From Dyella sp. 2HG41-7 (lineage in GTDB: Bacteria > Pseudomonadota > Gammaproteobacteria > Xanthomonadales > Rhodanobacteraceae): a stretch of 64,000 nt of DNA. A program made the translations under genes and the position numbers. Under the pieces are notes generated by a model that was not told where the DNA came from, ran no database searches, and was given only the letters and a program-made list of their open reading frames with translations. Of this stretch, positions 1,200 to 45,784 are shown piece by piece (position 1 is the first letter of the stretch; every line of letters begins with the position of its first letter). The stretch is from assembly GCF_021390675.1 (NCBI RefSeq), contig NZ_JAJEJV010000004.1:434001-498000 (forward strand), read 5' to 3'.

Positions 1200-1357
1200 T
1201 CGATCTGCGCGATCGACAAAAAAAGTAATCCCTTCGACGACGTTCGCCACTTCGCGGCGATGAAGACTTTGTGAAATTACATCAATGCGTTGCAGTGTTT
1301 TTGCGCCGCAGCGTGACAGCTCGCACCGTCAGGGTGTTAATTCCGTCTTAGGGGACT

Positions 1358-1382
1358 TAGATCGATTCAAATTATCGGACTT
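1358..1382. promoter_or_regulatory. Operator-like ATCGAT site joined to a TCGGAC element
   Basis: TTAGATCGATTCAAATT is followed directly by TTATCGGACTT. The first half matches the recurrent ATCGAT sites near 12.2 and 17.5 kb; the second resembles the TTGTCSGACAA sites at 7549, 12220 and 28059, but is degenerate. Confidence 0.4.
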
Positions 1383-1740
1383 TTACGCCCTGCAGCGGCT
1401 AAGAATGATCCGAATGGTTTGAACTGGGGTGGGGAGAACGACGGACGCGCGCCATGCGCCGGCCGCTGGGTATTGCTTCCCGTCGAAACGGTTGAGGCGA
1501 GAGGGACGCCAACACATGCAATCAGAAATCGTCAGCATTCCCGGCATGACAGGCGCGCGAATCGCGTGCGCGTCTGCGTTCGTATGTTGCGCGCCATCCA
1601 TTGATCGGCCATCGCAACGATGGCTGTTTCTGACTAGGACGCGTCTGAGCGCCATCGGCGCCGGAGCCTTCGTCGTAACGCATCCCGTTCGTTGAAGCAT
1701 CGCGCGCCGAGGCGCCGAGCGCCCGTTCGCGGCCGAAATT

Positions 1741-1756
1741 TTGGATCGATCTAAAT
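1741..1756. promoter_or_regulatory. LacI-type operator candidate
   Basis: TTGGATCGATCTAAAT is near-palindromic around a central CG, as in LacI-family operators. It lies 130 bp before the TBDR start and matches the sites at 12181, 12363, 17441 and 17621. Confidence 0.5.
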
Positions 1757-4800: not shown

Positions 4801-5055
4801 AATTGGACCGGCCGCACCATGGAAGGGCTGTCGTCCGGTTTGCCGTTGTACATGCAGCCGTACAACCAGATCGATCTGAACGGCGACTACGAGTTCACCA
4901 AACACTTTATGGTGACGGCGTCGATCATCAATCTCACGCGCTCCACTTCGCGCGAGTATTTGGGCAGCGATACCACGGACCGCCTCTACCAGCTCGAATA
5001 CGCGGGACGTCAGTACTATCTGGGCGTGACGTACAAGTTCGGAGATGGCGGTTGA
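1873..5055 (+). CDS. TonB-dependent receptor (glycan-locus type)
   Basis: A 1060-residue outer-membrane receptor. A signal sequence (to about residue 38, ending AIAFAAQ) is followed by a Pro-rich linker, a TonB-box-like TIVVTSF near residue 77, and a plug domain with IADALAHVPGVVISRD and VSIRGLAPELTLTELNG (about 95-200). A large 22-strand-type barrel follows, with aromatic strands and a C-terminal strand YYLGVTYKF. It should import a large oligosaccharide or chelate using TonB energy. The glycosidases immediately downstream (GH92, GH2) point to a mannose- or galactose-containing glycan. The start has a weak ribosome site (AGAAAGGGAATC). Family assignment is firm; substrate is inferred from context. 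Confidence 0.93.
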   Translation: MTNLPHVSTRKPLYAALALAILSFGGCMGMPAIAFAAQTAPAPASSSTPPPTVQAFDSKKPKKTDGKKVAGDTNNPTTLQTIVVTSFRQSIDQNMQEKRDANSIVEIINAQNISQFPAKNIADALAHVPGVVISRDAGEGKTVSIRGLAPELTLTELNGNYVASADTSDSLSRSFNYTLMPANMFSDIKLYKSLEARLDEGGIGGVVDLHTRRPLEMPANDGFISVNGAGSDNSSKVKPQVSALWSWRNKAQTFGVLVAGSYQERQSTDELTNASNWHWWSNNCTDFTTCTQPPVNVHGQQFGSSVEPNINLWPGGGVTDQANNSYSGYWMPQQFSTSRNNLDLKTKGAQVTLQFKPTSNFLLTGNYFRFQRQQDQIENTVEIPEWGLPTGSYADQQGNLLAPNGLTFDPSHTIVTGASYLLPNPGQGCNSLTNPVTGAQRQAVDVCSSQTPWITGNYSIEKALSQTINLEGEWDGGGNLSATFNVGRTWATGGPSVELGMAAKPRNFVNGQWVDGSQVSQWTLNGTPTLTASPNQLQNMLAGEGQVDLGSTGSNYIDTQTSQNFAQVDFTYAFDSSWMQSLQFGLKYRDNHAEQENYEIRWYCPGTTEQFQTCDPNAGNLPANFLLPTMLNGHTLAFNDNIFPAINFPAYYNYLNATYDRTVYPHPEDRSYIGEQIGAAYVQANIDTGPVRGNVGLRFVSTLQNLTVADQITTNNAVYYHSPQGAILICPTTGVNIAGGPCAPGDFEYLPQEQAVVETFTNASLRKRYNKLLPSFNFSWTLPNDIVLRAAGSQALARANYTDLAQLGSLTDNTQAYYNDRKQFGAPLPGWYGSGANINLKPFTATQFDVAGEWYYAPESVVGVDVFQKTVKNFVVPVTVNNTNVDVNGTPTPFMSYSTNANGRSGTSRGVEIYTQHTFPFGIGYIANYTLNKTNETAVTLGDTAVGKSELIGSAKYAANISLFYEKNGLLLRATSNWTGRTMEGLSSGLPLYMQPYNQIDLNGDYEFTKHFMVTASIINLTRSTSREYLGSDTTDRLYQLEYAGRQYYLGVTYKFGDGG

Positions 5056-5066
5056 AAAACGACGCG

Positions 5067-5093
5067 CGAGGTCAGGCACGCAGCCTGACCTCG
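5067..5093 (+). other. Intercistronic hairpin
   Basis: CGAGGTCAGG (5067-5076) pairs with CCTGACCTCG (5084-5093) around a 7-nt loop, just after the TBDR stop. There is no U-tract, so it more likely sets relative expression or mRNA stability than terminates fully before the GH92 gene. Confidence 0.6.
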
Positions 5094-5130
5094 CCGCGGT
5101 CTCGCACGGATGTTTGATGTGGAGCAGGTT

Positions 5131-7518: not shown

Positions 7519-7546
7519 TTTGTGCGGGAAACTCCTGACTTTGGAC

Positions 7547-7563
7547 ATTTGTCCGACAATTGG
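7547..7563. promoter_or_regulatory. GntR/FadR-type operator candidate
   Basis: TTGTCCGACAA (7549-7559) matches the FadR-subfamily consensus TNGTNNNACNA and continues into ATTGG. It sits between the GH92 stop and the GH2 start; closely similar sites occur at 12220 and 28059. Confidence 0.5.
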
Positions 7564-7622
7564 TCATGCTTAGGTGCGCGGTGCGCGACACCGCTTCGAG
7601 CGACGTCGATGAGGGAAAGCGA

Positions 7623-9479
7623 ATGATGGGCAAGTTCTACGTTCGGTGCGCGTGCATCAGCATGGCGCTGGGGTTCGCGTTGGTCGCGATGGCGGCGACG
7701 GATCAGGCCACGGTGTGGAGCGGCAAGATGGCGCCCTTGGCGACGCCGTGGACCGCCGACGTATCGCCGAGCAACGCGTTGCCCGATTATCCGCGACCGC
7801 AATTGGCGCGCCCGTCGTTGGAACATCCGCAATGGATCAGTTTGAACGGACTATGGCAGTTCGCGCCGAGCGACGGACAAAGCGCGCCGCCGTTCGGTCA
7901 GACGTTGAAGGAAAAAGTGCTGGTGCCGTATCCGATCGAGTCGGTGCTCTCGGGTGTGCAAAAACATTCGGACTTTATGTTCTACCGCCGACTGGTGGAT
8001 ATTCCTGCAGCCTTCACCGCCCACGGTCAGCACGTGCAATTGAACTTCGGCGCGGTGGATAACGACGCCACCGTGTACGTCAACGGCAAGCAGGTGGCGC
8101 AACATACTGGCGGCTACACGTCGTTCAGCGCAGACATCACGTCGGCGCTACGCACGCACGCTCCGCAGGAAATCGTCGTGGCCGTGCACGCGCCGGTCGA
8201 TGGCGCGAACGTGATGATCGGCAAGCAGCGATTGAAACCCGACGGCATCTTCTACACCGCCGCGTCGGGCATTTGGCAGTCGGTATGGCTGGAACCGGTG
8301 CCGGCGACCAGCTTGTCGCAACTGACGTTCACGTCGGCGCGCAGTTTGGATGCTTTCGACGTCACCGCAAAACTGCAAGGTCGCAGCGACGGCGCAACCT
8401 TGCATGTCGTCGCGTATGCAGACGGAAAGAAAGTGGGCGAAGCAAGCGGATCAGCCAGTGAACCGCTGCACGTGGCAATTGCGCATCCGCATCTGTGGAG
8501 CCCGCAGGATCCGTTCTTGTACACCTTCAAAGCCACGCTGACGCAAGGCGAGCAGCACGACGAGGTGACCAGTTATGCAGGCTTGCGCACCATCGCCATC
8601 GAGAAAGTGGGCGGACGCAATCGCATCGTGTTGAACGGCAAGCCGACATTTCTGCTCGCGACCTTGGATCAAGGCTACTGGCCCGACGGCATCTACACCG
8701 CACCCACCGACGCCGCGCTCAAGTTCGACATCCAAAAAACCAAAGACCTCGGTTTCAACACCATCCGCAAACACATCAAGGTCGAGCCGGCGCGCTGGTA
8801 TTACTGGACCGACCGCATCGGTTTGATGGTGTGGCAGGACATGCCGGCACTGCCGACCGGCAGCAACGACAAACTCAGCGACGCCGATAAAGCCAATTTC
8901 CGCGCGGACGTGACCGCTATCGTCAATCAACTCAAAGGCGAAACGTCGATCATCGGCTGGATTCCGTTCAACGAAGGCTGGGGCCAGTGGAGTATTCCCG
9001 CCGCCGCCGAACTCGCCGCGCAGATCAAGCAACTCGATCCCTCGCGCCTGGTCGATGCGCGCAGCGGCGCCAACTGCTGCGACACCAAGGGCGATCCGCA
9101 CGCGGGCGATGTGTACGACGTGCACGAATACCAAGGCCCCGGATTGCCCAGTCCGGATGCAGCGCGCGCCGCCATCGACGGCGAGCACGGCGGTTTGACG
9201 CTCGGCATTCCCGGCCACGTGTGGCCCAACACGCCGATCAATCCGTATGGCGCGGTGAAAGATCGCGACGCGTTGAACGCAGGTTATGTCGCCAACACCG
9301 CCGTGCTGCGCGACAAAGGCGTTCCAAAGGGCATGTCGGGCAGCGTCTACACGCAGATCACCGATGTCGAAGGCGAGCACAATGGCCTGTACACCTACGA
9401 CCGCAAGATCGAAAAAGTGGACGAAGCCAAAGTGCGCGCAATCAATGAAGCGACGATCCGTGCAGGCGCGCAGCCGTAA
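7623..9479 (+). CDS. Glycoside hydrolase family 2 (beta-galactosidase/beta-glycosidase-like), secreted
   Basis: Started at ATG 7623 behind GAGGGA; the next codon but one is also ATG. A signal peptide (to about residue 25, ALVAMAAT) is followed by a sugar-binding jelly-roll (WISLNGLWQF, FMFYRRLVDIP, GGYTSFSADI), an immunoglobulin-like domain and a TIM barrel. The acid/base Glu is in PFNEGWGQW (about residue 451); the nucleophile is probably the Glu in GEHGGL (about 520). Retaining exo-beta-glycosidase is the expected activity; galactoside, mannoside or glucuronide cannot be distinguished. It lies 104 bp after GH92, with its own operator-like site in the gap, so it may have separate control. 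Confidence 0.88.
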   Translation: MMGKFYVRCACISMALGFALVAMAATDQATVWSGKMAPLATPWTADVSPSNALPDYPRPQLARPSLEHPQWISLNGLWQFAPSDGQSAPPFGQTLKEKVLVPYPIESVLSGVQKHSDFMFYRRLVDIPAAFTAHGQHVQLNFGAVDNDATVYVNGKQVAQHTGGYTSFSADITSALRTHAPQEIVVAVHAPVDGANVMIGKQRLKPDGIFYTAASGIWQSVWLEPVPATSLSQLTFTSARSLDAFDVTAKLQGRSDGATLHVVAYADGKKVGEASGSASEPLHVAIAHPHLWSPQDPFLYTFKATLTQGEQHDEVTSYAGLRTIAIEKVGGRNRIVLNGKPTFLLATLDQGYWPDGIYTAPTDAALKFDIQKTKDLGFNTIRKHIKVEPARWYYWTDRIGLMVWQDMPALPTGSNDKLSDADKANFRADVTAIVNQLKGETSIIGWIPFNEGWGQWSIPAAAELAAQIKQLDPSRLVDARSGANCCDTKGDPHAGDVYDVHEYQGPGLPSPDAARAAIDGEHGGLTLGIPGHVWPNTPINPYGAVKDRDALNAGYVANTAVLRDKGVPKGMSGSVYTQITDVEGEHNGLYTYDRKIEKVDEAKVRAINEATIRAGAQP

Positions 9480-9488
9480 CGGCTGCGC
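9468..9488. terminator. Convergent hairpin, bidirectional terminator candidate
   Basis: GCGCAGCCG and CGGCTGCGC form a 9-bp stem with the GH2 stop codon TAA as its loop. It separates the convergent GH2 and SDR genes. No U-tract is present. Confidence 0.5.
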
Positions 9489-9503
9489 GTTCGCGTCGGT
9501 GAG

Positions 9504-10481
9504 TTAGAAACTTTCGCTAACCATTATTTCGCTCTTCGCCCAAAGCGCCTTGGCGCGATCCGCATCGAGCGCATAAGGACGAACGCCTTCGCTCACCGCG
9601 TCGAGGTTCGAATCGGTGACGACGGCGCCGACATGGCAGTCTTCGCAGTACCTGCCGCCAACATCGTTCGCATCGGCGACGACCGCTGCCCACACCGACG
9701 TCGCCGCGCCTTGCGGCACCGACTTCATGCGGAACGGCGGTTTCCCTGCGGCTTTGTGCAGTTCGTTGATCTCGTCGATACGCTGTTGAAGCATCGCCTC
9801 GTCGGGATAGATATGGCGTCCCAGTTCTGTGCGAATGCCGCCCGGATGCACGGCCGTCGCGCGCACGCCGCGATGCTTGTGGCGACGGTCGAACTCCACC
9901 GCAAATAAAATGTTGGCGGTTTTCGAGCGGCCATAGGCGATAAATTCCGCGTACTCGGTGCGTTCGAAATTGGGATCGTCCAGGTCCACATCCGCATAGC
10001 GATGGCCGGTCGAGGACAAGTTCACCAAGCGACCGCCGTCCTTGATCAGCGATGCGATGCGATTGATCAGCACGAAATGGCCCAGATGATTGGTGCCGAA
10101 TTGCGTTTCGAATCCGTCTTCGGTCAGGCCGTACGGGCACGCCATCACGCCGGCATTGGCGATGATCGCGTCGAAACGTTCGTCGCGCTCCAGCAAGCGT
10201 TCGGCGCAACGGCGCACGCTGGCGAGCGAGGCCAGATCCAGTTCGATCAGTTCCAAACCGCCTTGTCCGCGTGCGTCCGCGCGCACGCCTTTCGTTGCGT
10301 TTTCTGCTTTGGCGAGATCGCGCGCTGTGCCGACCACCAAGGTGCCGCGGGCCGCCAGCGCGCGCGCCGTTTCCACGCCCAGGCCGGCCGAAACGCCGGT
10401 GACCAGGATGCGTTTGCCGTTGAGATCGATGCCGTCCAGCACCTCGTCCGTCGTCGATGTTGCGCCGAATGATTTGTTCAT
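9504..10481 (-). CDS. Short-chain dehydrogenase/reductase (SDR)
   Basis: ATG at 10481 with GAGGCG upstream. Rossmann motif TGVSAGLGVETARAL (about residues 29-43), NAGVM, the catalytic serine in LSSTGH, and the catalytic pair YGRSKTAN (YxxxK). It resembles the long-chain retinol-dehydrogenase-like or WW-domain-oxidoreductase-like branch of bacterial SDRs, which reduce or oxidise alcohols and ketones with NAD(P)H. It is divergent from a TetR regulator, with a palindrome between, so it is probably controlled by that regulator together with the NAD(P)-binding protein beyond it. Substrate unknown. Confidence 0.88.
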   Translation of the reverse strand: MNKSFGATSTTDEVLDGIDLNGKRILVTGVSAGLGVETARALAARGTLVVGTARDLAKAENATKGVRADARGQGGLELIELDLASLASVRRCAERLLERDERFDAIIANAGVMACPYGLTEDGFETQFGTNHLGHFVLINRIASLIKDGGRLVNLSSTGHRYADVDLDDPNFERTEYAEFIAYGRSKTANILFAVEFDRRHKHRGVRATAVHPGGIRTELGRHIYPDEAMLQQRIDEINELHKAAGKPPFRMKSVPQGAATSVWAAVVADANDVGGRYCEDCHVGAVVTDSNLDAVSEGVRPYALDADRAKALWAKSEIMVSESF

Positions 10482-12180: not shown

Positions 12181-12195
12181 TTGGATCGATCTAAT
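12181..12195. promoter_or_regulatory. LacI-type operator candidate
   Basis: TTGGATCGATCTAAT, with the same core as the sites at 1741 and 17440, and similarly placed (about 100 bp) upstream of the promoter. Confidence 0.5.
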
Positions 12196-12270: not shown

Positions 12271-12288
12271 TTTGAATCGATACAAATT
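12271..12288. promoter_or_regulatory. ATCGAT operator overlapping the promoter
   Basis: TTTGAATCGATACAAATT is an imperfect palindrome ending 5 bp before the -35 box. An almost identical site occupies the same place in the GH18 promoter (17529-17546). Confidence 0.55.
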
Positions 12289-12292
12289 CTTG

Positions 12293-12321
12293 TTGACATC
12301 GTACTTTTCCTATCCTAATGA
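12293..12321 (+). promoter_or_regulatory. Sigma-70 promoter of the locus 2 TBDR
   Basis: A consensus -35 TTGACA (12293-12298), a 17-bp spacer and -10-like TAATGA (12316-12321). The homologous promoter at 17551 has the same -35 and spacing. Confidence 0.65.
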
Positions 12322-12362
12322 TTAGCTCGCTCGTGACACTGGGTACAACGTTGTCACAGCAT

Positions 12363-12377
12363 TTGGATCGATTGAAA
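12363..12377. promoter_or_regulatory. Downstream ATCGAT operator in the leader
   Basis: TTGGATCGATTGAAA lies about 40 bp after the -10 box, so a bound repressor could block elongation. The same element is at 17621 in the GH18 leader. Confidence 0.5.
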
Positions 12378-12380
12378 CAA

Positions 12381-12520
12381 TCAGTATCCGGAGGACTCAG
12401 GGGACGGCGCGGTTAGGCGGTTATCTCGCCTCGGCAGGCGCCAGTAGTTGGGTCGGTTACGCATCACTGAACACGTATGACGGAAGGCCACGGCGACCGC
12501 CATGGCCCAGGGGTCGGTTT
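12381..12520 (+). ncRNA. Candidate structured leader RNA, copy A
   Basis: Homologous to copy B at 17639-17775. A shared 5' segment (CAGTATCCGGAGGACTC) precedes three predicted hairpins. P1 is GGCGC (12406-12410)/GCGCC (12438-12442) with inner AGGCG (12415-12419)/CGCCT (12427-12431). P2 is ACG (12459-12461)/CGT (12474-12476), following the conserved GGGTCGGTT. P3 is GGCCACGGC-GACC-GCCATGGCC (12486-12507). Relative to copy B, P1 swaps C-G for U-A, P2 swaps ACG/CGU for UGC/GCA, and P3 shows wobble and pairing changes, which supports RNA structure. It ends about 65 nt before the TBDR start. No known riboswitch class was recognised. Confidence 0.6.
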
Positions 12521-12586
12521 GTGCCCAAAAAAAGCATCGCGAATGCGGGCACCACAGCAATCAATTCGAAAGGTGAGGGGAGGCAA

Positions 12587-15500
12587 ATGAGCAAGAATCA
12601 ATTTCGTTTGGGGACCAGCTTGCAGGCCAGCATTCGCATTGGCCTATGGGCTGCCGCATTAGTCAGCGCTCCGGTATTCGCGCAGAGCATTACCGGCGGC
12701 GTGTACGGCAATTCGCCGGCAGGCGCGGACGTAGAAGTCACCAGCCCGTCGACGGGCTACGACGCCACCGTGCATGCCGACGCCAACGGGCACTACAACG
12801 TGACCGGCTTGATGCCCGGCAACTACGTCGTGAAATTGTTGCGCGGCGGCCAGGTGGTCGATCAGCGCAACGTGGTGGTGCAAGCCGGTTCCAACAGCGC
12901 TGCGATTTTCACCGCAGCGGCGGCGCCGGGTAACGTGAAAGAGTTGAACTCGGTCACCGTGACCGCCTCGCAGCCGACGGTCAATGCGATCGACGTGACG
13001 ACGAGCCAGCAGATCCAGACCTGGGATTCGAAAGACATCAACCGTCTGCCGGTGATCAATCCCGACCTGCTTACCGTCGCCTCGATGCAGGCGAATGTCG
13101 CCGCCGTCACCAGCTCGCACGGCAACGCGCCGCAGTTCAACGGCGCATCGGGCACCGAGAACCGTTACTTCCTCAACGAGTTCAACGTCACCGACATGCA
13201 GCAGGGTTCGGTGCCGGACAAAATTCCGAACGAAGCGCTCGCGACCGTTTCCACCATCGATGGCGGCATGGACGCGAAATACGGCAGCGCCATGGGCGGC
13301 GTGATCGCCGGCACGATCAAGCAAGGTTCGAACGACTTCAAAGCCGGCGTGGATCTGGCGTTTACGCCCGCCACCGGCACGCTCAACGAAAACCCGCGCA
13401 ACACGTATAACTACAACGGCCAGCTGACCAACGCCAACCAGTTGAACCATTGGTCGCCGAGCCTGTTGCAGGATTACTGGGCGTCGGGTTCGATCATCAA
13501 GGACAAGTTGTTCTACTACGTGCTCGCCGAAATCGAGCCGAACAACTACGGCCAGGGCGTGCAGGGCGTCAATCCGACCGAAACCTACAACTCCAACACC
13601 AAGACGCTCAACGAAAACCGCAACAAGCAGTTCCTCGGCAACTTCACTTGGAACATCGCCGCCGGTCATACGTTGAATCTCTTTATCGATCGTCAAAGCA
13701 ACCTGCAGACGCAATCGCAGTATGCGCTGTCGACGCCGTACGATCCTTCCAGTGCGGCCCCCGGACTGGACAACTGGAGCGGCAACGCGTGGCACGACAC
13801 CATGGCGGTGGCCAACTACCACGGCCAGATCACCGACACGTTGTCCGTCTCGGCGATGGCGGGTACGTCGCAGCAGTACTTCTCTTCGTATAACCAGTAC
13901 GGCATCGACATTCCGTATCTGCAATACACCAACCCGGACACGAAGCAGACGACGCAGCCGGCCGGCAACGGCGCCAGCAGTCTGTACTACATGAAGTACC
14001 GCATGATGGGCGCGCGCGTCGACTTCACCTGGAACGTGACCGACAACCACGAAGTCACCTTCGGCGGCGAGCGTTACAGCCCGACCATGGCGCAGGCGAA
14101 CATCCCGAACGCGAATTCGTGGACGTACAGCTACTGCAGCACGTCCTTGGGACCGACCGAGCCTTGCAACATCAACGGCGTGTCGGTGGCGCCGGGCACG
14201 AAGTTCGTAAGTTTGAACTACGCGCCCCGCATCTACTACAACAGCTCGCCCACCTACGGTTTCTACCTGGGCGACAGCTGGCATTTCGCGCCGAACTGGA
14301 CGGCGTATGTCGGCGGGCGTTACGACAATTACGCCATGACCGACAACATCAACACCAAGATGTACAGCAAGGGCAACTTCTTGCCGCGCGTCGGCGTGGC
14401 ATGGGACGTCCATGGCGATTCGACGCTGAAGATCGGCGCCACCGCGGGTGAATACTCCGAAGGCATTCCGCTTTACTTCAACGCGTACGGCGGCACGCCG
14501 GGCCAGGGTTACATCCACACCAACACCACGTACACCTACACCGGCGTCAACGCCGACGGTACGCCGAGCGGTTTGACGCAAGTTGGTCCCGTGCAAGGCA
14601 GCTCCGGCAGCGGTCTGCATTACCTGACGCCCGGCCAGTTCATTTCGAGCACCACGCAAAACGCCAAGCTGAAGCAGTTCTCGATCTACGCGCAGCAGAA
14701 GATCGGTGACAGCTGGACCGCAGGCGCAACGTTCTTCACCAGCGAACTGACCGGCCTGCCGAACATCTACAACAATATCGATCAGCTGAAGGCGTACCTC
14801 ACCAACAAGGGTTACCCGAACGCGGTGTTCCTCGGCCAGTACCTGATCACGCCGGGCAAGGACATCAATATTCCGGTGCAGTTGAACGGTCCGAACAGTC
14901 CGTTGACGCAAGTCAACTTCCCGAACAGCTACATCGGTTTCTCCTCGCTGCGACGCAAGATCTATCAGCTCAGTCTGACCATGGATCACGCGTACTCCGA
15001 GGAAGAGCCGTACTACCTCAGCGCGTCGTACACGTGGCGTCATGAGTTCGGCAATACCGACGGCACCACCAGCTACGCGGGCGGTGGTAACAACACCGGT
15101 GCGACCGGCTACGACGGCGGCTTGAACGCACCGGGCTTCCTGCAAGGCGCAGCCGGCAATCTCGGCGATGATATTCCGTCCACCTTCAAGGCGTTCGGTT
15201 ACTACAAGTTCGCTCATCAGGACAATTTCCTGAAGGGTCTGCGTGTGGGCGGCGCACTGACGTATTACGCGGGCGGTCCGGTCGATTGCTTGTCCCAATA
15301 TCCGCAAAACGGCACCTTGGCGATCGGCAGCAACCAGCTCGGCAACAACAACGCGTATTACTGCAACACGTTGTCCAACGTGCTGGCCGGTCAATCGCCG
15401 ATTTCCAACACCATCAACTACACGCGTGGCAGCTACGGTCGTCTGCCGTCGTACAAGCAGGTGGATCTGGATATCGGCTACGACTGGGAGATCCCCAACA

Positions 15501-15673
15501 ACACCTTCTCGCTGGATTTGAAGGTGCTCAACCTGTTCAACTCCAACACCGTTACCTCGTACGTCACCAACATGAGCAACGGCAACGGGCAGTTCAATCC
15601 GAACTTTATGCAGCCCAATACGTTCCAGCAGCCGCGCACCGGCGAATTGGTGTTCCGCTGGCAGTTCCATTGA
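12587..15673 (+). CDS. TonB-dependent receptor, Oar/OmpA-type with carboxypeptidase-like N-domain
   Basis: Started at ATG 12587 behind GAGGGGAGG; the open frame reaches back to 12521 without a ribosome site. A signal peptide ending VSAPVFAQ is followed by a CarboxypepD_reg-like beta-sandwich (about residues 30-105: GADVEVTSPSTGYDAT, GHYNVTGLMPGNYVVKL). Next come the TonB-box region NSVTVTAS and a plug with VPDKIPNEALATVSTIDGG. A barrel of about 850 residues, rich in Asn and Tyr, ends GELVFRWQF. Oar-type receptors are abundant in Xanthomonadales; the cargo is unknown. A terminator follows, then a sulfotransferase and a GH18-like gene; the GH18 gene shares this promoter and leader, suggesting a common glycan substrate. 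Confidence 0.92.
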   Translation: MSKNQFRLGTSLQASIRIGLWAAALVSAPVFAQSITGGVYGNSPAGADVEVTSPSTGYDATVHADANGHYNVTGLMPGNYVVKLLRGGQVVDQRNVVVQAGSNSAAIFTAAAAPGNVKELNSVTVTASQPTVNAIDVTTSQQIQTWDSKDINRLPVINPDLLTVASMQANVAAVTSSHGNAPQFNGASGTENRYFLNEFNVTDMQQGSVPDKIPNEALATVSTIDGGMDAKYGSAMGGVIAGTIKQGSNDFKAGVDLAFTPATGTLNENPRNTYNYNGQLTNANQLNHWSPSLLQDYWASGSIIKDKLFYYVLAEIEPNNYGQGVQGVNPTETYNSNTKTLNENRNKQFLGNFTWNIAAGHTLNLFIDRQSNLQTQSQYALSTPYDPSSAAPGLDNWSGNAWHDTMAVANYHGQITDTLSVSAMAGTSQQYFSSYNQYGIDIPYLQYTNPDTKQTTQPAGNGASSLYYMKYRMMGARVDFTWNVTDNHEVTFGGERYSPTMAQANIPNANSWTYSYCSTSLGPTEPCNINGVSVAPGTKFVSLNYAPRIYYNSSPTYGFYLGDSWHFAPNWTAYVGGRYDNYAMTDNINTKMYSKGNFLPRVGVAWDVHGDSTLKIGATAGEYSEGIPLYFNAYGGTPGQGYIHTNTTYTYTGVNADGTPSGLTQVGPVQGSSGSGLHYLTPGQFISSTTQNAKLKQFSIYAQQKIGDSWTAGATFFTSELTGLPNIYNNIDQLKAYLTNKGYPNAVFLGQYLITPGKDINIPVQLNGPNSPLTQVNFPNSYIGFSSLRRKIYQLSLTMDHAYSEEEPYYLSASYTWRHEFGNTDGTTSYAGGGNNTGATGYDGGLNAPGFLQGAAGNLGDDIPSTFKAFGYYKFAHQDNFLKGLRVGGALTYYAGGPVDCLSQYPQNGTLAIGSNQLGNNNAYYCNTLSNVLAGQSPISNTINYTRGSYGRLPSYKQVDLDIGYDWEIPNNTFSLDLKVLNLFNSNTVTSYVTNMSNGNGQFNPNFMQPNTFQQPRTGELVFRWQFH

Positions 15674-15702
15674 TCGTTTGACGCTGTACTCGCTGTAACA
15701 TC

Positions 15703-15743
15703 GATGCCTCCATGTCCCTATTGCATGGAGGCATCTTTGTTTT
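15703..15743 (+). terminator. Rho-independent terminator after the TBDR
   Basis: GATGCCTCCATG (15703-15714) pairs perfectly with CATGGAGGCATC (15724-15735), followed by TTTGTTTT. The 12-bp stem contains the ATG at 15712, which therefore should not be a real start codon. Confidence 0.85.
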
Positions 15744-15777
15744 GCGCTCACGCCACGTCTGGCGTCCGGAGACGGAT

Positions 15778-17340
15778 TTGAATTCGCTACTGCAAAGTCT
15801 GGATTCCGAAGCGGCGAATCGCGTGATGGCTGCGGCGCAAGCGTTGGAATCGAATCGTCCCGATCAGGCGGCCGCACACTTGGCGCCGGTGCTGGGTAGT
15901 CATCCGGACCATCCGGAAGTGCTGCGACTGCATGCGAGTTTGCTCAGCATGCGCGGCGAACGCGGCGCTGCTTTGCGCGCGATGCAACGCGCGCTGGAAC
16001 AATGCCCGCACGACGCGATGTATCGCAACGCATACGCCATCCTGCTGGCGGACGTGGGCGATATCGATCAAGCCATCGACGAACTGCGTCGCGCCTGCGA
16101 ACTTCAACCGGGCTTTGTCATGGCCTGGTACAACCTCGGCCTGTTTTTGACGCGCAGCGCGCGCTTCGACGAAGCACGCGACGCGCTGCGACGCGCCGTC
16201 GACGTGGCGCCGAACTACGCTGCGGCACGCGCGCAACTCGCCGACCTGCTGCGCATGGACAACTTCCGTGACGAAGCGATCGCCGAATACCGCAAGCTGA
16301 TCGCCGAGCAACCGTGGGCCGGGATGGCGTGGTGGGGTTTGGCGGAAATCAAAACGCTGCGCTTGGATCGCAGCGACAGCGACGCCATGCAGCGCGCGCT
16401 CGCGCATCCGCGTGCGAACGACGGTGATCGCATCGCCCTAGGTTTCGCTTTGGCCAAGGCGATGGACGATCAAGGCCGCTATGGCGAATCGCTGCAAGCA
16501 CTGGTTTCGGCGAACGATATCGCGCGACAGCATCGAACATGGAACGCTGCGGCCGTCGCTGCAACGATCGATTCAATTCGCGCCACGGCCTGCACAACTC
16601 ACGCAGGACAAGATCTCGGTGCGGAAGTGATCTTTATCGTCGGCATGCCGCGCTCGGGCTCGACGCTGATCGAACAAATTCTCGCATCGCACTCCAGCGT
16701 CGAAGGCGCCGCCGAATTGACGGACTTGCCGATGCTGATTGCGGAGGAGTCGAACAAACGGAAAAAAGCCTACCCGCACTGGCTGCCGGATATGGGCTCG
16801 GAGGATTGGTTCGCGCTAGGACAGCGGTATCTGGAGCGCACCGCACGTTGGCGCAAACAGCGTCCGATCTTCACCGACAAGTTGCCGAACAACTGGATGC
16901 ATATCGGCATGATTCGCGCGATGTTGCCGGGCGCGCGCATCGTCATCAGTCGCCGCGACGCACTCGAAACGTGTTTCTCGTGTTACCGGCAGTATTTTCC
17001 CGGAAACGACTACACGCGTTCGTTTGCGGATCTCGCATCGTATTGGCGCAGCCTCGATGCCGTGGCACGTTATTGGACGCAGAAAGAACGCGCGCATGTG
17101 CGTGAACACGTGTACGAAGACTTGCTCAAAGATCCCGAGCATTCCATTCGCGCATTGTTGGCATTTTGCGGTTTGCCATTCGAAGAAGCGTGCTTGCGCT
17201 TCAACGAAACGGAGCGCTCAGTCGGTACGCCGAGCGCCATGCAAGTGCGGCAACCGTTGCGCACCGACACGGCGCGCGCGCCGCGCTACGGCGCGCTATT
17301 GAATCCATTGCGCGAAGCGCTCGGTCTTCCGCCTTTATAG
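15778..17340 (+). CDS. TPR-containing sulfotransferase
   Basis: The open frame begins at ATG 15712, but that codon lies inside a terminator stem. TTG 15778 has GGAG six bases upstream and begins LNSLLQSLDSE, so it is preferred with moderate certainty. Residues about 1-230 are tetratricopeptide repeats (for example AYAILLADVGDIDQAIDEL, AWYNLGLFLTRSARFDEAR). The C-terminal half is a PAPS-dependent sulfotransferase with the 5'-phosphosulfate loop IFIVGMPRSGSTLIEQ (about 285-300) and the 3'-phosphate motif ARIVISRRDALETCFS. This architecture is common next to Oar-type receptors. The acceptor (glycan or protein) is unknown. Confidence 0.87.
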   Translation: MNSLLQSLDSEAANRVMAAAQALESNRPDQAAAHLAPVLGSHPDHPEVLRLHASLLSMRGERGAALRAMQRALEQCPHDAMYRNAYAILLADVGDIDQAIDELRRACELQPGFVMAWYNLGLFLTRSARFDEARDALRRAVDVAPNYAAARAQLADLLRMDNFRDEAIAEYRKLIAEQPWAGMAWWGLAEIKTLRLDRSDSDAMQRALAHPRANDGDRIALGFALAKAMDDQGRYGESLQALVSANDIARQHRTWNAAAVAATIDSIRATACTTHAGQDLGAEVIFIVGMPRSGSTLIEQILASHSSVEGAAELTDLPMLIAEESNKRKKAYPHWLPDMGSEDWFALGQRYLERTARWRKQRPIFTDKLPNNWMHIGMIRAMLPGARIVISRRDALETCFSCYRQYFPGNDYTRSFADLASYWRSLDAVARYWTQKERAHVREHVYEDLLKDPEHSIRALLAFCGLPFEEACLRFNETERSVGTPSAMQVRQPLRTDTARAPRYGALLNPLREALGLPPL

Positions 17341-17362
17341 GCTGGAATTTTCATTCCAGCCT
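17339..17362 (+). other. Hairpin overlapping the sulfotransferase stop
   Basis: AGGCTGGAAT-TTTC-ATTCCAGCCT is a perfect 10-bp stem with a 4-nt loop that includes the end of the stop codon. There is no U-run, but it may act as a terminator or 3' stabiliser. Confidence 0.55.
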
Positions 17363-17439
17363 ACTTGGCTGTCGTCGCATTTAAACGGATTTATTCACCG
17401 ATTATGCGGACGCAGCATCCAGTAAATCCATGAATTGCT

Positions 17440-17453
17440 TAGATCGATCTAAT
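17440..17453. promoter_or_regulatory. LacI-type operator candidate
   Basis: TAGATCGATCTAAT is nearly palindromic and equivalent to the site at 12181 in locus 2 TBDR control. Confidence 0.5.
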
Positions 17454-17528
17454 TGACCGTGCTGTTGTGCAGCAGCGTTTTGACAAAACTTTCATATCTT
17501 TCAACAAGATGCATTTAGAAAATCTAAA

Positions 17529-17546
17529 TTTGAATCGATATAAATT
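17529..17546. promoter_or_regulatory. ATCGAT operator overlapping the promoter
   Basis: TTTGAATCGATATAAATT lies immediately upstream of the -35 box, differing by one base from the site at 12271. Confidence 0.55.
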
Positions 17547-17550
17547 CTTG

Positions 17551-17579
17551 TTGACATTGCCTTTTTACTGCCTTATTCA
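17551..17579 (+). promoter_or_regulatory. Sigma-70 promoter of the GH18-like gene
   Basis: TTGACA (17551-17556), a 17-bp spacer, then TATTCA (17574-17579). It is homologous to the promoter at 12293, including the downstream TTAGCTCGCTCGTGA stretch. Confidence 0.65.
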
Positions 17580-17620
17580 TTAGCTCGCTCGTGATTTTAG
17601 TCCAACGTTGTCACGGGCAT

Positions 17621-17635
17621 TTGGATCGATTGAAA
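17621..17635. promoter_or_regulatory. Downstream ATCGAT operator in the leader
   Basis: TTGGATCGATTGAAA is identical to the element at 12363 and at a similar distance from the promoter. Confidence 0.5.
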
Positions 17636-17638
17636 AAT

Positions 17639-17775
17639 CAGTATCCGGAGGACTCTGGGGAAAGGCGTGACAAGGCGGCGTCGCCTGCAGCACACGCCGG
17701 TGATTGGGTCGGTTTGCGTATCTCTGAAAGCAGTGCCGAAAGGTCATGGCGACAGCCATGGCTCAGGGAGGTTTT
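17639..17775 (+). ncRNA. Candidate structured leader RNA, copy B
   Basis: Counterpart of copy A (12381-12520). P1 is GGCGT (17664-17668)/ACGCC (17694-17698) with inner AGGCG (17673-17677)/CGCCT (17682-17686). P2 is TGC (17715-17717)/GCA (17730-17732). P3 is GGTCATGGC-GACA-GCCATGGCT (17742-17763). Unpaired GTATCCGGAGGACTC and GGGTCGGTT are shared. It is about 245 nt from the GH18 start, much farther than copy A from its gene, which argues against simple masking of the ribosome site. Confidence 0.6.
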
Positions 17776-18018: not shown

Positions 18019-20001
18019 ATGAAGCATACGAAGAGTCGTCGTTCGCGGTTGCGTCGCACGTCGTTAGCGCTGCTTTCTGTTACGGCGCTGGCGTTCGCGT
18101 GCGGTAGCGCGAATGCGCAGACAACGGGTTATACCGGCATCTATGGCGGCGGCCCGTTGTACAAGCACGTAGCGGCCAATATTTCGGAGATCGAAAACTC
18201 CGGTTTCACCGAAGTGATCGTGTGGAGCGTCGAAGTGAGCTCCGCGGGCGATCTGAATCTCAACGGCGAATTTCCGCTTACGTCCGGCGGCACTTATGTC
18301 GGCAATAACACGTATCCATCGTTCGCCGCAGATCTGGTGACGATGAAGCAGGGCACGCCCAAACGCATCACGCTCAGCATCGGTTCGTCGAACGTCGGCG
18401 ATTTCCAGGACATCAAGGCCCTGGTCAATTCGCAGGGCACGGGACCGAGCAGCATTCTCTACAAAGATTTCCAAGCGCTGAAAGCCGCGCTGCCGTCGGT
18501 CGATGCGATCGATTTCGACGACGAAAACAGTTACGACTCCGCCTCAACCGTCGCGTTTGCGGTAATGCTGGGCAATCTCGGTTATCACGTGACGGTTTCG
18601 CCGTACACCAACGCGTCGTATTGGACATCGGTGGTGTCGCAGATCAACACCCAGCTCGCCGGCACGGTCGACGGCGTGCATCTGCAAGCGTATTCCGGTG
18701 GTGCGGGCAACAGTCCGTGCTCGGGTTGGAGTTTCGGCAGTGTGCCGGTCTATCCCGGGTTGTGGGACAGCAACGACACGCCGCCGCAGATGCAAAGCCA
18801 GATGAGCAGCTGGCATTCGCAATGCTCGATCACCGGTGGCTTCCTATGGTTGTACGACGACATCGTCGGCAAAACGTATAACGGCGGCAACGAAACGGCC
18901 GCGTACGCCAGCGCCATCAATACCGGTGTTGGCGGCAACACCGCGACCACCGGCATCTATGGCATCTACAGCGACGGAACGGCGTTCAGCACCGGTGGAC
19001 TCGACGGCAACGGTTACGCGTATTCCTCCAACCTGCTCGGCACATCGCAGACGTGGAACGGCGCTACCTTCACCATCGGCGCGGCCAACACGGTCAATGT
19101 CGAAAGCGGTGGCACCCTCAATCTGACGCAAGGCCAGTACAGCGAGTTGAGCGTGCTGGCGACCGGCATCAATGGCGGTCAGACGGCGCAAACCTTCCAA
19201 GTCAACTACACCGACGGCACCAGCACGGTGATCAGTCAGAGCATCAGCGATTGGTTTACGCCGTCGAGTTATCCGGATGAGGCGAAGGCCGTCACGATGG
19301 CGTATCGCAACACCAGCACCGGTACCAAGGACAACCGCACGTTCTATCTGTACGGCTATGCGTTCCCGATCGACAGCACCAAGACGGTCAAGAGCGTCAC
19401 TTTGCCGAACAATCGCAACGTGGTCGTCGTGTCGTATGCGCTGAGCAATCCGTCGATCAACGCGACGCCGGTCAGTCTTGCATCGGCGTTCAACAAAACC
19501 GGCATCTACAACGACGGGGCAACGTTCTCGTCAACCGGCGGCGTCGACAATGTCGGCGATGCGTATTCGGCGCAGCTGTTCGGTTCGTCGCTGGAATTCA
19601 ACGACGTGCTGTATCGCTTCGGCGCCGCCAACGCCGCCAACGACGTCAGTGCGACGGGTCAGACGATCACGTTGCCGGCTGGTCAGTTCTCCAGCCTGCA
19701 ACTGCTCGCGGCTGCGGTGAACGGAAGCCAGACGTCGCAAACCTTCAAGGTGACTTACACCGACGGCACCAGCTCGACCTTTACGCAAAGCATCAGCGAT
19801 TGGTTCACGCCGCAAAGTTATGCCGGCGAATTGCAGGCGGCGAAATTGCCGTACCGCGATACGTATAGCGGCGGTCGCGACAGCCGCACGTTCTATCTCT
19901 ACAACTACAAACTCAGCCTCAACAACGCCAAGACCGTTCAGAGCATCACGCTACCGAACAACGCCAACGTGCAGATCGCGGCGATGACGCTGGTGCAATA
20001 G
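18019..20001 (+). CDS. GH18-like secreted glycosidase with two C-terminal repeat modules
   Basis: ATG 18019 gives a classic signal peptide (basic MKHTKSRRSRLRR, then LALLSVTALAFACGSANAQ); upstream in-frame sequence is not used. Residues about 35-310 resemble a GH18 TIM barrel: SIGSSNVGDF matches the SxGG-type strand and VDAIDFDDENSYD matches DGxDxDxE, putting the likely acid Glu near residue 166. GH18 members are chitinases or endo-beta-N-acetylglucosaminidases. The C-terminus holds two homologous modules of about 165 residues (about 315-480 and 488-660). Each has TGIY, a QTFxVxYTDGTS strand, SISDWFTP, RTFYLYxY and LPNNxNV, likely carbohydrate-binding beta-sandwiches. It shares promoter and leader with the TBDR at 12587. 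Confidence 0.75.
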   Translation: MKHTKSRRSRLRRTSLALLSVTALAFACGSANAQTTGYTGIYGGGPLYKHVAANISEIENSGFTEVIVWSVEVSSAGDLNLNGEFPLTSGGTYVGNNTYPSFAADLVTMKQGTPKRITLSIGSSNVGDFQDIKALVNSQGTGPSSILYKDFQALKAALPSVDAIDFDDENSYDSASTVAFAVMLGNLGYHVTVSPYTNASYWTSVVSQINTQLAGTVDGVHLQAYSGGAGNSPCSGWSFGSVPVYPGLWDSNDTPPQMQSQMSSWHSQCSITGGFLWLYDDIVGKTYNGGNETAAYASAINTGVGGNTATTGIYGIYSDGTAFSTGGLDGNGYAYSSNLLGTSQTWNGATFTIGAANTVNVESGGTLNLTQGQYSELSVLATGINGGQTAQTFQVNYTDGTSTVISQSISDWFTPSSYPDEAKAVTMAYRNTSTGTKDNRTFYLYGYAFPIDSTKTVKSVTLPNNRNVVVVSYALSNPSINATPVSLASAFNKTGIYNDGATFSSTGGVDNVGDAYSAQLFGSSLEFNDVLYRFGAANAANDVSATGQTITLPAGQFSSLQLLAAAVNGSQTSQTFKVTYTDGTSSTFTQSISDWFTPQSYAGELQAAKLPYRDTYSGGRDSRTFYLYNYKLSLNNAKTVQSITLPNNANVQIAAMTLVQ

Positions 20002-20142: not shown

Positions 20143-20222
20143 TAGGTGCGCTTCGAAAGCATGTGAGCTAACGTACCGCGGCAACGTTCGACACAGGGTC
20201 CGGTTATTTAAGGATGTCGACC

Positions 20223-21131
20223 ATGACGCAACACGATGCGGCGACGCTCGTTTTCGAGAAAAGGCACAGCCGACTGGCATTTGCGAAAGAATGTTATCGA
20301 TGGGGCATGATTCAGCTGCTTCGGCAGCAATCGAACAAACACATTGCTGAGCACCGAAAGCAACTGGTGGTGTTTTCGTTCGACTTTATTGCGCACAACA
20401 TCAATCTCAACGGCGTTTACGAGAAAGACGACCTCGATACCTTTTTCGAATGGCTTGAGTCGAGCGGCGTCGATTTAAAAGACGCCACGGCGATCGATAT
20501 CGGCGCCAATATCGGCAATCACAGCCTGTATTTCTCCAGTCACTTCAAACGCGTGGTGAGCTTCGAGCCCCATCCGCGTATCTTCAAAGTGCTGTCGCTC
20601 AACGCCGAACTTGTCGACAACCTGACGTGCCACAACGTTGGCCTGTCCGATCAAGAGGGCAGCGCGATCTTGTCGGGTCCGGCGAACAATTTCGGCCGCT
20701 CGACCATCGGCGAGCTGCGAGATGCGCGATCGGTCGATATCATGCTGACGACGCTCGATACATTTCGCGAGTTCGACAACGTCAAGCTGATCAAGATTGA
20801 TGTCGAAGGCCACGAATACAAAGTGCTGCAAGGCGCCAAAAACGTGATTCAGCAACACAAGCCGATCATTTTGTTCGAGCAGCACGTCGAAGACTTCAAG
20901 AACGGCGAATCGCAGATCCTGTCGTTGCTGAAGGAGTTCGGCTATAGAAGCTTCGCCACCGTCAGGCGATATCCGCTGCCGTTGCCGTCGGCGCTGAAAT
21001 TCCTCGTCACGCCGTTGCAGCGCATCGTGCAGGGCGAGCAAACCAGAATCGTCCAGACCAGCCGCATCGCGCCGGATTTTTACAGCTTCATCATTGCGCT
21101 GCCCGACTGGATGCAGACGACAGCGCAATAG
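20223..21131 (+). CDS. FkbM-family SAM-dependent methyltransferase
   Basis: TAAGG at 20209-20213 is 9 bp before ATG 20223 and directly abuts the earlier in-frame ATG 20214, so 20223 is preferred. SAM motif I is AIDIGANIGNHSLYFS (about residues 90-105), followed by VVSFEPHPRIFKVL and KLIKIDVEGHEYKVLQGA. These are FkbM hallmarks: O-methylation of sugars or other small molecules. It lies after the terminator of the GH18 gene and convergent to a two-component system, so it is probably monocistronic. It might modify a surface glycan, but context alone does not show this. Confidence 0.85.
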   Translation: MTQHDAATLVFEKRHSRLAFAKECYRWGMIQLLRQQSNKHIAEHRKQLVVFSFDFIAHNINLNGVYEKDDLDTFFEWLESSGVDLKDATAIDIGANIGNHSLYFSSHFKRVVSFEPHPRIFKVLSLNAELVDNLTCHNVGLSDQEGSAILSGPANNFGRSTIGELRDARSVDIMLTTLDTFREFDNVKLIKIDVEGHEYKVLQGAKNVIQQHKPIILFEQHVEDFKNGESQILSLLKEFGYRSFATVRRYPLPLPSALKFLVTPLQRIVQGEQTRIVQTSRIAPDFYSFIIALPDWMQTTAQ

Positions 21132-45282: not shown

Positions 45283-45362
45283 ACCGTCGTCCCGGCGAAA
45301 GCCGGGACCCAGCGACTTTCGACGTAACAAAGACACTGGGCCCCGGCTTTCGCCGGGGCGAC
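45283..45362. repeat. Palindromic repeat R5
   Basis: CGTCGTCCCGGCGAAAGCCGG through a CGACTTTCGACGTAACAAAG core to GGCTTTCGCCGGGGCGACG. Same family as R6 and R7. Confidence 0.8.
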
Positions 45363-45463
45363 GAGCAAAAAAAATGACGTCGCACGTCTTTGCTGTCAGC
45401 GCTCGCTCTGATATCCGCAGTCGCCGCGCGGTCACCACCTACCTCACCGCCTCCAATCACCCC

Positions 45464-45543
45464 ACCGTCGTCCCGGCGAAAGTCGAGACCCAGCGACTTT
45501 CGACGCAACAAAGACACTGGGCCCCGGCTTTCGCCGGGGCGAC
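45464..45543. repeat. Palindromic repeat R6
   Basis: Nearly identical to R5, 181 bp downstream, with the same spacer before it; differs at GTCGAGACC and GACGCAAC. Confidence 0.8.
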
Positions 45544-45644
45544 GAGCAAAAAAACTGACGTCGCACGTCTTTGCTGTCAGCTCTCGCTTTGATACCCGCA
45601 ATCGCCGCGCAGTCACCACTCACCATACCGTCTCCAATTTCCCC

Positions 45645-45784
45645 ACCGTCGTCCCGGCGAAAGCCGGACGTAGCGCGAAGCGCGGAGAACGTCCGAAGGA
45701 CGGCCCCGAAGGGGTGAGCGAAGCGAATCACCCAGCGACTTTCGACGCAACAAAGACACTGGGCCCCGGCTTTCGCCGGGGCGA
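45645..45784. repeat. Palindromic repeat R7 with inverted 65-bp module
   Basis: R5/R6-type arms and core, but the module at 45668-45732 (CGTAGCGCGAAGCGCGGAG ... GCGAATCACC) is the reverse complement of the module in R4. Confidence 0.75.

What the first reader, a model, noticed from the sequence alone, without database searches (positions are those of the whole stretch)
12293..17775. A duplicated promoter-plus-leader with three covarying hairpins: candidate new regulatory RNA
The 5' regions of the TBDR (12587) and the GH18-like gene (18019) are homologous over about 230 bp: same operators, TTGACA promoter, and a leader with CAGTATCCGGAGGACTC, GGGTCGGTT and three hairpins. The pairs covary between copies (P1 GGCGC/GCGCC versus GGCGU/ACGCC; P2 ACG/CGU versus UGC/GCA; P3 keeps pairing through wobbles with GACC or GACA loops). 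Sequence conservation where no protein is encoded, plus compensatory change, points to RNA function. I could not match it to a known riboswitch. It may sense a sugar or second messenger for a glycan regulon.
Basis: partly seen in the sequence, partly recalled or inferred. Interest (0 to 1): 0.82.

Follow-up and report, generated by a model that had tools for sequence, protein, structure and literature searches.

The report
Duplicated LacI-controlled promoter with hairpin leader
Two neighbouring genes for taking up and cutting sugar chains share a duplicated control region whose clearest feature is a row of evenly spaced repressor-type binding sites; the message after it has hairpins, but evidence that they act as a sensor is weak.

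Summary
The duplicated promoter-plus-leader is real. Each copy has TTGACA and three TTNRATCGATNNAA palindromes 91 bp apart, then a leader with hairpins. It occurs in 10 of 16 genus genomes (15 copies), the same ten that hold the TBDR orthologue. A covariance model finds two more copies in another genus, again before that receptor.

The RNA-regulator case is weak: no Rfam match; no significantly covarying pair in 15 or 17 copies; marginal helix signals; a decoy structure scores as well as the true one on one of two out-of-genus copies. CAGTATCCGGAGGACTC is in the least conserved leader block. P3 folds well in 11 of 15 copies, but not in the window's copy 1. Against this reading, a short block after P3 is kept in both genera.

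Best reading: a LacI-family repressor on paired operators, perhaps looping DNA as in gal. The candidate heads a mannose-type operon (LacI, MFS, PfkB, GlcNAc-2-epimerase; divergent GH92) and has its own operator pair 90-92 bp apart in 15 of 16 genus genomes and 91 bp in both out-of-genus genomes (68, 92).

The parts
12181..12194 (.). copy 1 operator O1 (TTGGATCGATCTAA), centre about -141 from the predicted start
   Evidence: in relatives O1-O2 is 67-91 bp, matched in 14 of 15 copies
12272..12285 (.). copy 1 operator O2 (TTGAATCGATACAA), 7 bp before the -35 box, centre about -50
12293..12321 (+). copy 1 promoter: TTGACA, 17 bp, TAATGA (the scan reports AATGAT with an 18-bp spacer); start site predicted near 12328
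   Evidence: 1 found, 0.7 expected; TTGACA at this place in all 15 genus copies
12330..12361 (.). P0: inverted repeat at the predicted transcript start (six pairs in copy 1, nine in some relatives, counted by eye); pairing about as good on the antisense strand, so it may be a DNA site
12363..12376 (.). copy 1 operator O3 (TTGGATCGATTGAA) inside the predicted transcribed leader, centre about +41
   Evidence: 95% mean identity among eight receptor-linked copies; O2-O3 91-93 bp in 13 of 15 copies, O3 not matched in two copy-2 leaders
12406..12442 (+). copy 1 hairpin P1 (outer GGCGC/GCGCC, inner AGGCG/CGCCT)
   Evidence: mean folding z -0.49 over 15 copies, hardly better than shuffles
12485..12508 (+). 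copy 1 hairpin P3 (one C.A mismatch)
   Evidence: mean folding z -3.58 over 15 copies, below -3 in 11 of 15, this copy -1.15; 134 of 149 cells canonical
12510..12526 (+). block after P3 (GGGYGGNUUUGUGCCC in most copies, kept in both second-genus copies); could pair within itself (P4alt) instead of P4
12521..12552 (+). copy 1 hairpin P4 (GTGCCC/GGGCAC), upstream of the ribosome-binding site
   Evidence: 69 of 74 cells canonical
12587..15673 (+). TonB-dependent receptor (Oar-like barrel, CarboxypepD_reg, Plug; the last two just under Pfam's cut-off)
   Evidence: orthologue in 10 of 16 genus genomes, own included, the other nine 74-91% identical
15712..17340 (+). TPR-sulfotransferase-like protein behind the receptor
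17439..17452 (.). copy 2 operator O1 (TTAGATCGATCTAA)
17530..17543 (.). copy 2 operator O2 (TTGAATCGATATAA)
17551..17579 (+). copy 2 promoter: TTGACA, 17 bp, TATTCA (not scored by the generic scan)
17588..17617 (.). copy 2 P0 inverted repeat
17621..17634 (.). copy 2 operator O3 (TTGGATCGATTGAA)
17664..17698 (+). copy 2 hairpin P1 (GGCGTG/CACGCC, inner AGGCG/CGCCT)
17742..17764 (+). copy 2 hairpin P3
   Evidence: z -3.91
18019..20001 (+). GH18-like protein with a signal-peptide-like start (DAIDFDDE fits the recalled DxxDxDxE motif; no Pfam hit at E 0.001, no NCBIfam hit at 0.1)
   Evidence: homologues in 32 of 233 family genomes at E 1e-10
1357..1754 (.). two more palindromes of the same kind (1357-1370 and 1741-1754) before the TBDR (1873), GH92 and GH2 genes

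Best explanation
The repeated unit is the control region of a mannose/mannoside-type glycan-uptake regulon. A LacI-family repressor binds palindromic operators. O2 (about -50) and O3 (about +41) flank the promoter 91 bp apart and O1 adds a third site upstream, so repressor bound at two sites probably closes a small DNA loop, and O3 may also block elongation, much as GalR works in gal. A sugar released inside the cell would lift repression. An old duplication of a receptor unit, older than the split of the genus's species, gave the second copy, which now drives the GH18-like gene after its own receptor decayed. The leader that follows (about 260 nt in copy 1, about 430 nt in copy 2) is a 5'UTR with hairpins: P3, stable in most copies, and weaker P1 and P4. 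They may tune mRNA stability or translation but are not shown to sense anything. Shown by sequence: palindromes, spacing, copies, linkage of a LacI gene in the second genus, hairpin-forming repeats. Inferred: which LacI binds, repression, looping, inducer, transcription start, the receptor decay, any role of the hairpins.
For: Operators: 16 distinct sites in the 4.26-Mb genome (26 strand hits, 0 for the backwards control), 8 of them in this 64-kb window. Spacing 91+91 bp in both copies; O2-O3 91-93 bp in 13 of 15 genus copies, 79 and 78 bp in the second genus. Promoter plus O2 occurs in 10 of 233 family genomes, all one genus; O3 is the best conserved block (95%). Regulator: in both second-genus genomes a LacI gene lies about 4.2 kb upstream of the leader copy. 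Its orthologue in the window's genome is 74.6% identical, the other seven LacI proteins 25-31%. That orthologue heads a LacI-MFS-PfkB-GlcNAc-2-epimerase gene row divergent from GH92, is in 16 of 16 genus genomes, and has two operator-like sites upstream 90-92 bp apart in 15 of 16 of them and 91 bp apart in both second-genus genomes. Duplication: a split of copy-1 from copy-2 leaders with support 0.84, and a short MYRK-type frame behind copy-2-type leaders in L054 and L056 and in L057 that resembles the start of the second-genus receptors. Precedents: SuxR, a LacI-type repressor of a Xanthomonas TBDR locus (PMC1790865, passages); GalR loop 113 bp and a LacI loop of 95 bp (PMC4693257, passages).
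Against: No binding, expression or start-site data. In this genome the regulator lies about 0.6 Mb away, and seven other LacI-type genes exist. The lacI operators (TTGGATCGTTCYAA) differ from those in the window. O3 is not matched in 2 of 15 genus copies and O1 in 1 of 15. In the second genus no O1 was found and the O2-like site TTAGATCAATACAA lacks the central CG. 91 bp is not a whole number of turns at 10.5 bp (8.67). O1-O3 lie 211-406 bp before the start codon, while over 75% of LacI sites lie 30-140 bp before it (PMC4052901, passage). Six genus genomes have the LacI gene but no such leader. One receptor-linked copy (L056) groups with copy 2.
Confidence: 0.68

Rival explanations
1. The leader is a new cis-regulatory RNA (riboswitch-like, or a target of a protein or sRNA) that controls the receptor and GH18-like genes after transcription starts.
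For: Model R1 finds full-length copies in a second genus at 64.9 and 57.5 bits, before the same receptor. P3 has folding z below -3 in 11 of 15 copies; the whole leader averages z -1.77 on the sense and -1.07 on the antisense strand. Tree-based tests with 17 copies give p 0.0045 (P1 inner), 0.021 (P3), 0.021 (P4alt, which excludes P4), 0.040 (P1 outer), 0.043 (P4). A block after P3, GGGYGGNUUUGUGCCC, is kept in both second-genus copies. True structure beats decoy by 8 bits on G202.
Against: No significantly covarying pair. Under the null that keeps column make-up no helix is below p 0.18, and P1 inner had p 0.21 with 15 copies. P3 is almost as stable on the antisense strand (mean z -3.07). The decoy structure beats the true one on G200, 65.6 against 64.9 bits. 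No Rfam match; no terminator found in copy 1 and one in copy 2 against 1.3 expected. The linker between P1 and P3 diverges in the second genus.
Confidence: 0.2
2. The leader hairpins have no special role: the leader resembles its copy and orthologues by shared descent, with strong constraint only on operators and promoter.
For: P1 (61%), the CAGTATCC block (48%) and the linker (68%) are not above the 68% at 4-fold sites. P1 folds hardly better than shuffles. Pair counts are like shuffles.
Against: P3 and P4 (75-76%) exceed 4-fold sites; the leader, P3 and the block after it are recognisable in a second genus.
Confidence: 0.4
3. A different LacI-family protein of this genome, not the mannose-operon one, binds O1-O3.
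For: Eight LacI-family genes in the genome, none in the window; the sites differ between the two promoters.
Against: Closeness of this LacI orthologue to the leader copy in both second-genus genomes and the shared 90-92 bp spacing.
Confidence: 0.15
4. The P0 dyad at the start site is a further DNA site for a second regulator rather than an RNA stem.
For: With antisense wobble rules p 0.002, with sense rules p 0.35; 113 and 111 of 133 cells pair.
Against: Half-sites are far apart; one position is often C.A or G.A; folding is better on the sense strand (mean z -1.75 against -1.13); no regulator identified.
Confidence: 0.2

Closest known systems
gal operon of E. coli (GalR, OE and OI)
   Same: Two LacI/GalR-family operators enclose the promoter region about 100 bp apart (113 bp in gal; PMC4693257, passages seen).
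   Different: 91 bp here (78-79 bp in the second genus), a third site upstream, a different repressor; binding, HU and looping not tested.
sux locus of Xanthomonas campestris (SuxR, LacI family, with TBDR SuxA)
   Same: A LacI-type repressor controls a TonB-dependent receptor and an MFS transporter (PMC1790865, passages seen).
   Different: Other gene content (PfkB, epimerase, GH92, sulfotransferase); operators and proteins were not compared.
Man pathway of Shewanella (manR, manP, manI, manK, omp-Man)
   Same: The same kinds of part are listed for mannosides: regulators, transporters, outer-membrane protein, manI and manK (PMC2996990, table passage seen).
   Different: Orthology of the proteins was not tested; operators not compared.
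Rfam cis-regulatory leaders and riboswitches
   Same: Hairpins in a 5'UTR before uptake genes, with copies in two genera.
   Different: No family match, no significant covariation, diverged linker, no terminator found in copy 1.

Membership tests
LacI/GalR-family operator regulon | Even palindromic site with central CG (1251 of 1303 LacI regulators have even palindromes, 1173 a central CG; PMC4052901, passage) | tested here: met
   TTNRATCGATNNAA in the window and genus copies; the second-genus O2-like site lacks the central CG
LacI/GalR-family operator regulon | A LacI-family gene linked to such sites | tested here: met
   About 4.2 kb from the leader copy in both second-genus genomes; own orthologue with its own operator pair
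LacI/GalR-family operator regulon | Repressor binds the sites; inducer releases it | not testable with these tools
   no binding data
gal-type DNA-loop repression | Operators on both sides of the promoter | tested here: met
   O2 about -50 and O3 about +41 from a predicted, unmapped start site
[quoted passage not shown]
   spacings 67, 78-80 and 88-93 bp occur; 91 bp is 8.67 turns at 10.5 bp per turn
Mannoside (ManR-type) regulon | LacI regulator with transporter, sugar isomerase/epimerase and kinase | tested here: met
   Pfam LacI, MFS_1, PfkB, GlcNAc_2-epim, divergent GH92
Mannoside (ManR-type) regulon | Orthology to a characterised ManR and mannose as inducer | not tested
   no characterised ManR sequence was compared
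Known Rfam RNA family | Score above gathering threshold | tested here: not met
New structured cis-regulatory RNA | Significant covariation of paired columns | tested here: not met
   low power with 15-17 copies
New structured cis-regulatory RNA | Hairpins kept in a distant genus | tested here: inconclusive
   by eye P3 kept in G200, kept with an extra pair position and a mismatch in G202; P1 outer broken in G200; decoy comparison mixed
Riboswitch | Conserved unpaired core | tested here: inconclusive
   P1-P3 linker diverges in the second genus, but a 16-nt block after P3 is kept
Riboswitch | Recognisable expression platform | tested here: inconclusive
   no intrinsic terminator found in copy 1, one in copy 2 against 1.3 expected; mutually exclusive P4/P4alt possible

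The most novel reading that the evidence does not exclude
The leader is a new, lineage-specific structured 5'UTR that goes with one TonB-dependent receptor of a mannoside regulon in two genera and adds a second, RNA-level control on top of LacI repression, for example through the mutually exclusive helices GGGYG/UGCCC and GUGCCC/GGGCAC before the ribosome-binding site.
Probability: 0.18. Interest if true: 0.55.

Novelty: new member of a known kind. Interest (0 to 1): 0.33.

Why it matters
If right, it ties a receptor, a GH18-like enzyme and probably GH92/GH2 enzymes to one LacI-type repressor through an operator array whose spacing recurs at three promoters: a concrete, testable regulon. It also shows that two copies in one genome are too few to read compensatory change: the apparent covariation is not significant when 15-17 copies are compared.

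Tried and rejected
Rfam at gathering threshold over the window, and at E up to 5 over both leaders: three weak hits to eukaryotic or Pseudomonas families far below their cut-offs. Exact 17-mer scan of genome contigs: 19 stretches in various taxa; I looked at 3 of the 19: two Lysobacteraceae hits are the coding string QYPEDS and the third shows no leader by eye; the other 16 were not inspected, and the scan may leave out the window's nearest genomes. Blastn hits outside the genus (62 of the 72 matching genomes, E 4e-4 or worse) set aside as chance; most are 20-40 nt matches to the GC-rich P3 stretch. Weak model hits (12 of 24 genomes, at most 24.8 bits) set aside; the three whose alignments I saw lack the middle of the model. 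Model R1 on a sample of 398 genomes of the order found no strong copy outside the two genera. These negatives are limited: only 3, 12 or 7 first-look candidates were scored per genome. P5 (GCC/GGC before the ribosome-binding site): p 0.73. P4's inner pairs: p 0.52. Literature: seven searches; in the listings I saw no paper on this leader or on this LacI regulon; only open-licence papers are held. Passages of four papers were seen, none read whole.

Rows dropped before counts: the third, promoter-only copy in L059 was left out of alignments A1-A3. One search used eight receptor-linked copies of nine (L056 left out). The range L163:4972-6168 was a wrong guess and gave nothing. In the second genus the MFS, PfkB and epimerase genes were recognised by eye from their sequence starts, not by a family search.

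Full report
What is there. The stretches before the TBDR gene (12587) and the GH18-like gene (18019) are homologous (78% over about 270 bp). Each holds three palindromes TTNRATCGATNNAA, 91 and 91 bp apart in both copies, TTGACA between the second and third, and a leader with hairpins (about 260 nt from the predicted start to the start codon in copy 1, about 430 nt in copy 2). The blastn search of the own genome gives only these two places. No Rfam family matches.

Copies elsewhere. Among 233 genomes of the family, blastn finds the unit in 10 of 16 genomes of the same genus; a promoter-plus-O2 pattern finds the same ten, and these are the ten with the TBDR orthologue (own, and nine at 74-91% identity; other TBDR hits are at most 36% identical). 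I aligned 15 copies: nine before the receptor and six before the GH18-like gene (in L060 the receptor is divergent, in L056 a short broken frame lies between leader and receptor). Copy-1 and copy-2 leaders are separated by a split of support 0.84, with the receptor-linked L056 on the copy-2 side, so the duplication is probably older than the species. Short frames beginning MYRK behind the leader in L054 and L056 and before the GH18-like gene in L057 resemble the start of the second-genus receptors, MYRKxVLSTAIVAT: copy 2 was probably once a receptor unit. A covariance model of P1-P4 (R1) finds the 15 copies plus two new full-length ones in another genus, 64.9 and 57.5 bits. Both lie before the orthologous receptor (73-74% identity) and sulfotransferase (76%), with O2- and O3-like sites 79 and 78 bp apart; no O1 was found and the O2-like site lacks the central CG. 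A sample of 398 genomes of the order gave no other strong copy.

Is the RNA under selection as RNA? (1) G-test with a simulated tree null, my own script in the manner of R-scape and not R-scape itself: best pair E 2.6 with 15 copies and 2.2 with 17; with 17 no helix pair has E under 300, and by eye none of the 40 pairs listed is a helix pair. (2) Pair counts on A2: 87.8% of 402 cells canonical against 87.2% in column shuffles, 6 pairs with double changes against 4.6, covariation score 0.211 against 0.202; versions slid by 1-3 columns pair in only 36-43% of cells, as expected for a structure taken from the consensus. (3) Helix tests that keep column make-up: P3 p 0.18, the others 0.43-0.88. (4) Helix tests with a general substitution null: 15 copies P3 p 0.033, P1 outer 0.063, P4 0.11, P4alt 0.12, P1 inner 0.21, P2 0.22, P0 0.35; 17 copies P1 inner 0.0045, P3 0.021, P4alt 0.021, P1 outer 0.040, P4 0.043, P5 0.73. 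Six single helices were tried there, so only P1 inner would survive a correction, and it did not stand out with 15 copies. (5) Folding energy, mean z sense/antisense: P3 -3.58/-3.07, P0 -1.75/-1.13, P1 -0.49/-1.02, whole leader -1.77/-1.07; P3 is below -3 in 11 of 15 copies, and -1.15 in the window's copy 1. (6) Models on the two second-genus copies: true structure 64.9/57.5 bits, sequence only 58.4/43.0, decoy structure 65.6/49.3; effective sequence numbers differ (2.56, 2.42, 3.6), so this is rough. Together: P3 is a hairpin in most copies, P1 and P4 are plausible, RNA-level selection is not demonstrated and, with so few copies, not excluded. In favour of the RNA reading, a block after P3 (GGGYGGNUUUGUGCCC) is kept in both second-genus copies.

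Conservation. Among eight receptor-linked copies, mean pairwise identity is 95% for O3, 79% for P0, 78% for O2 and promoter, 76% for P4, 75% for P3, 68% for the linker, 61% each for P1, the O1-O2 spacer and the tail, and 48% for the block with CAGTATCCGGAGGACTC, against 68% at 4-fold sites of the receptor gene. The strongest constraint is on an operator.

The regulator. The genome has 16 distinct sites of this palindrome, 8 in the window, two of them before the TBDR-GH92-GH2 genes at 1873-9479. None of the eight LacI-family genes lies in the window. In both second-genus genomes a LacI gene lies about 4.2 kb upstream of the leader copy. Its orthologue here (74.6% identity; the other seven 25-31%) heads a LacI-MFS-PfkB-GlcNAc-2-epimerase row divergent from a GH92 gene, and is in 16 of 16 genus genomes. 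Upstream of it lie two operator-like sites 90-92 bp apart in 15 of 16 genus genomes (one site in G080) and 91 bp apart in both second-genus genomes. The recurrence of this spacing at three promoters is the most telling new observation.

Mechanism. O2 and O3 flank the promoter as OE and OI do in gal, where a 113-bp loop represses; a LacI loop of 95 bp has been seen by electron microscopy (PMC4693257, passages). LacI-type control of a Xanthomonas TBDR is known (SuxR; PMC1790865, passages), and a mannoside pathway with the same kinds of part is listed for Shewanella (PMC2996990, table passage). Operator spacings of 67, 78-80 and 88-93 bp differ by about one or two turns, which hints at a face-of-the-helix constraint, but the phase at 10.5 bp per turn is loose (0.38-0.86) and the independent changes are about three. 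The inducer (mannose or a derivative) is inferred from gene content.

Verdict.

Noticed in passing
L164:6099-13424 (G000:C4 about 1.076-1.083 Mb): LacI-MFS-PfkB-GlcNAc-2-epimerase gene row divergent from GH92, with its own operator pair 91 bp apart; a likely mannose operon of this genome.
   Followed up: partly
window 18019-20001: 660-aa GH18-like protein without a Pfam or NCBIfam hit; its C-terminal part resembles Azi28/AziU2 weakly (E about 7e-4). Homologues in 32 of 233 family genomes, many matched only over about the first 300 residues.
   Followed up: partly
window 20214-21131: FkbM-family methyltransferase just after the GH18-like gene.
   Followed up: no
L059 (reverse complement) 9178-9792: A third promoter copy with an O2-like site stands before a 151-aa protein with a signal-peptide-like start instead of a receptor.
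   Followed up: partly
window 17338-17363: Inverted repeat TAGGCTGGAAT...ATTCCAGCCTA at the end of the sulfotransferase gene, seen by eye; palindromic elements also sit between these genes in L055, L057 and L058.
   Followed up: no
window 45289-45782, minus strand: Four weak 20-nt hits of the P3 part of model R1 (E 0.15-2), suggesting an internally repeated GC-rich stretch.
   Followed up: no
L068:4495-11825 (just upstream of the window): Hybrid histidine kinase, an EAL and a GGDEF protein in a row, all with GAF domains.
   Followed up: no
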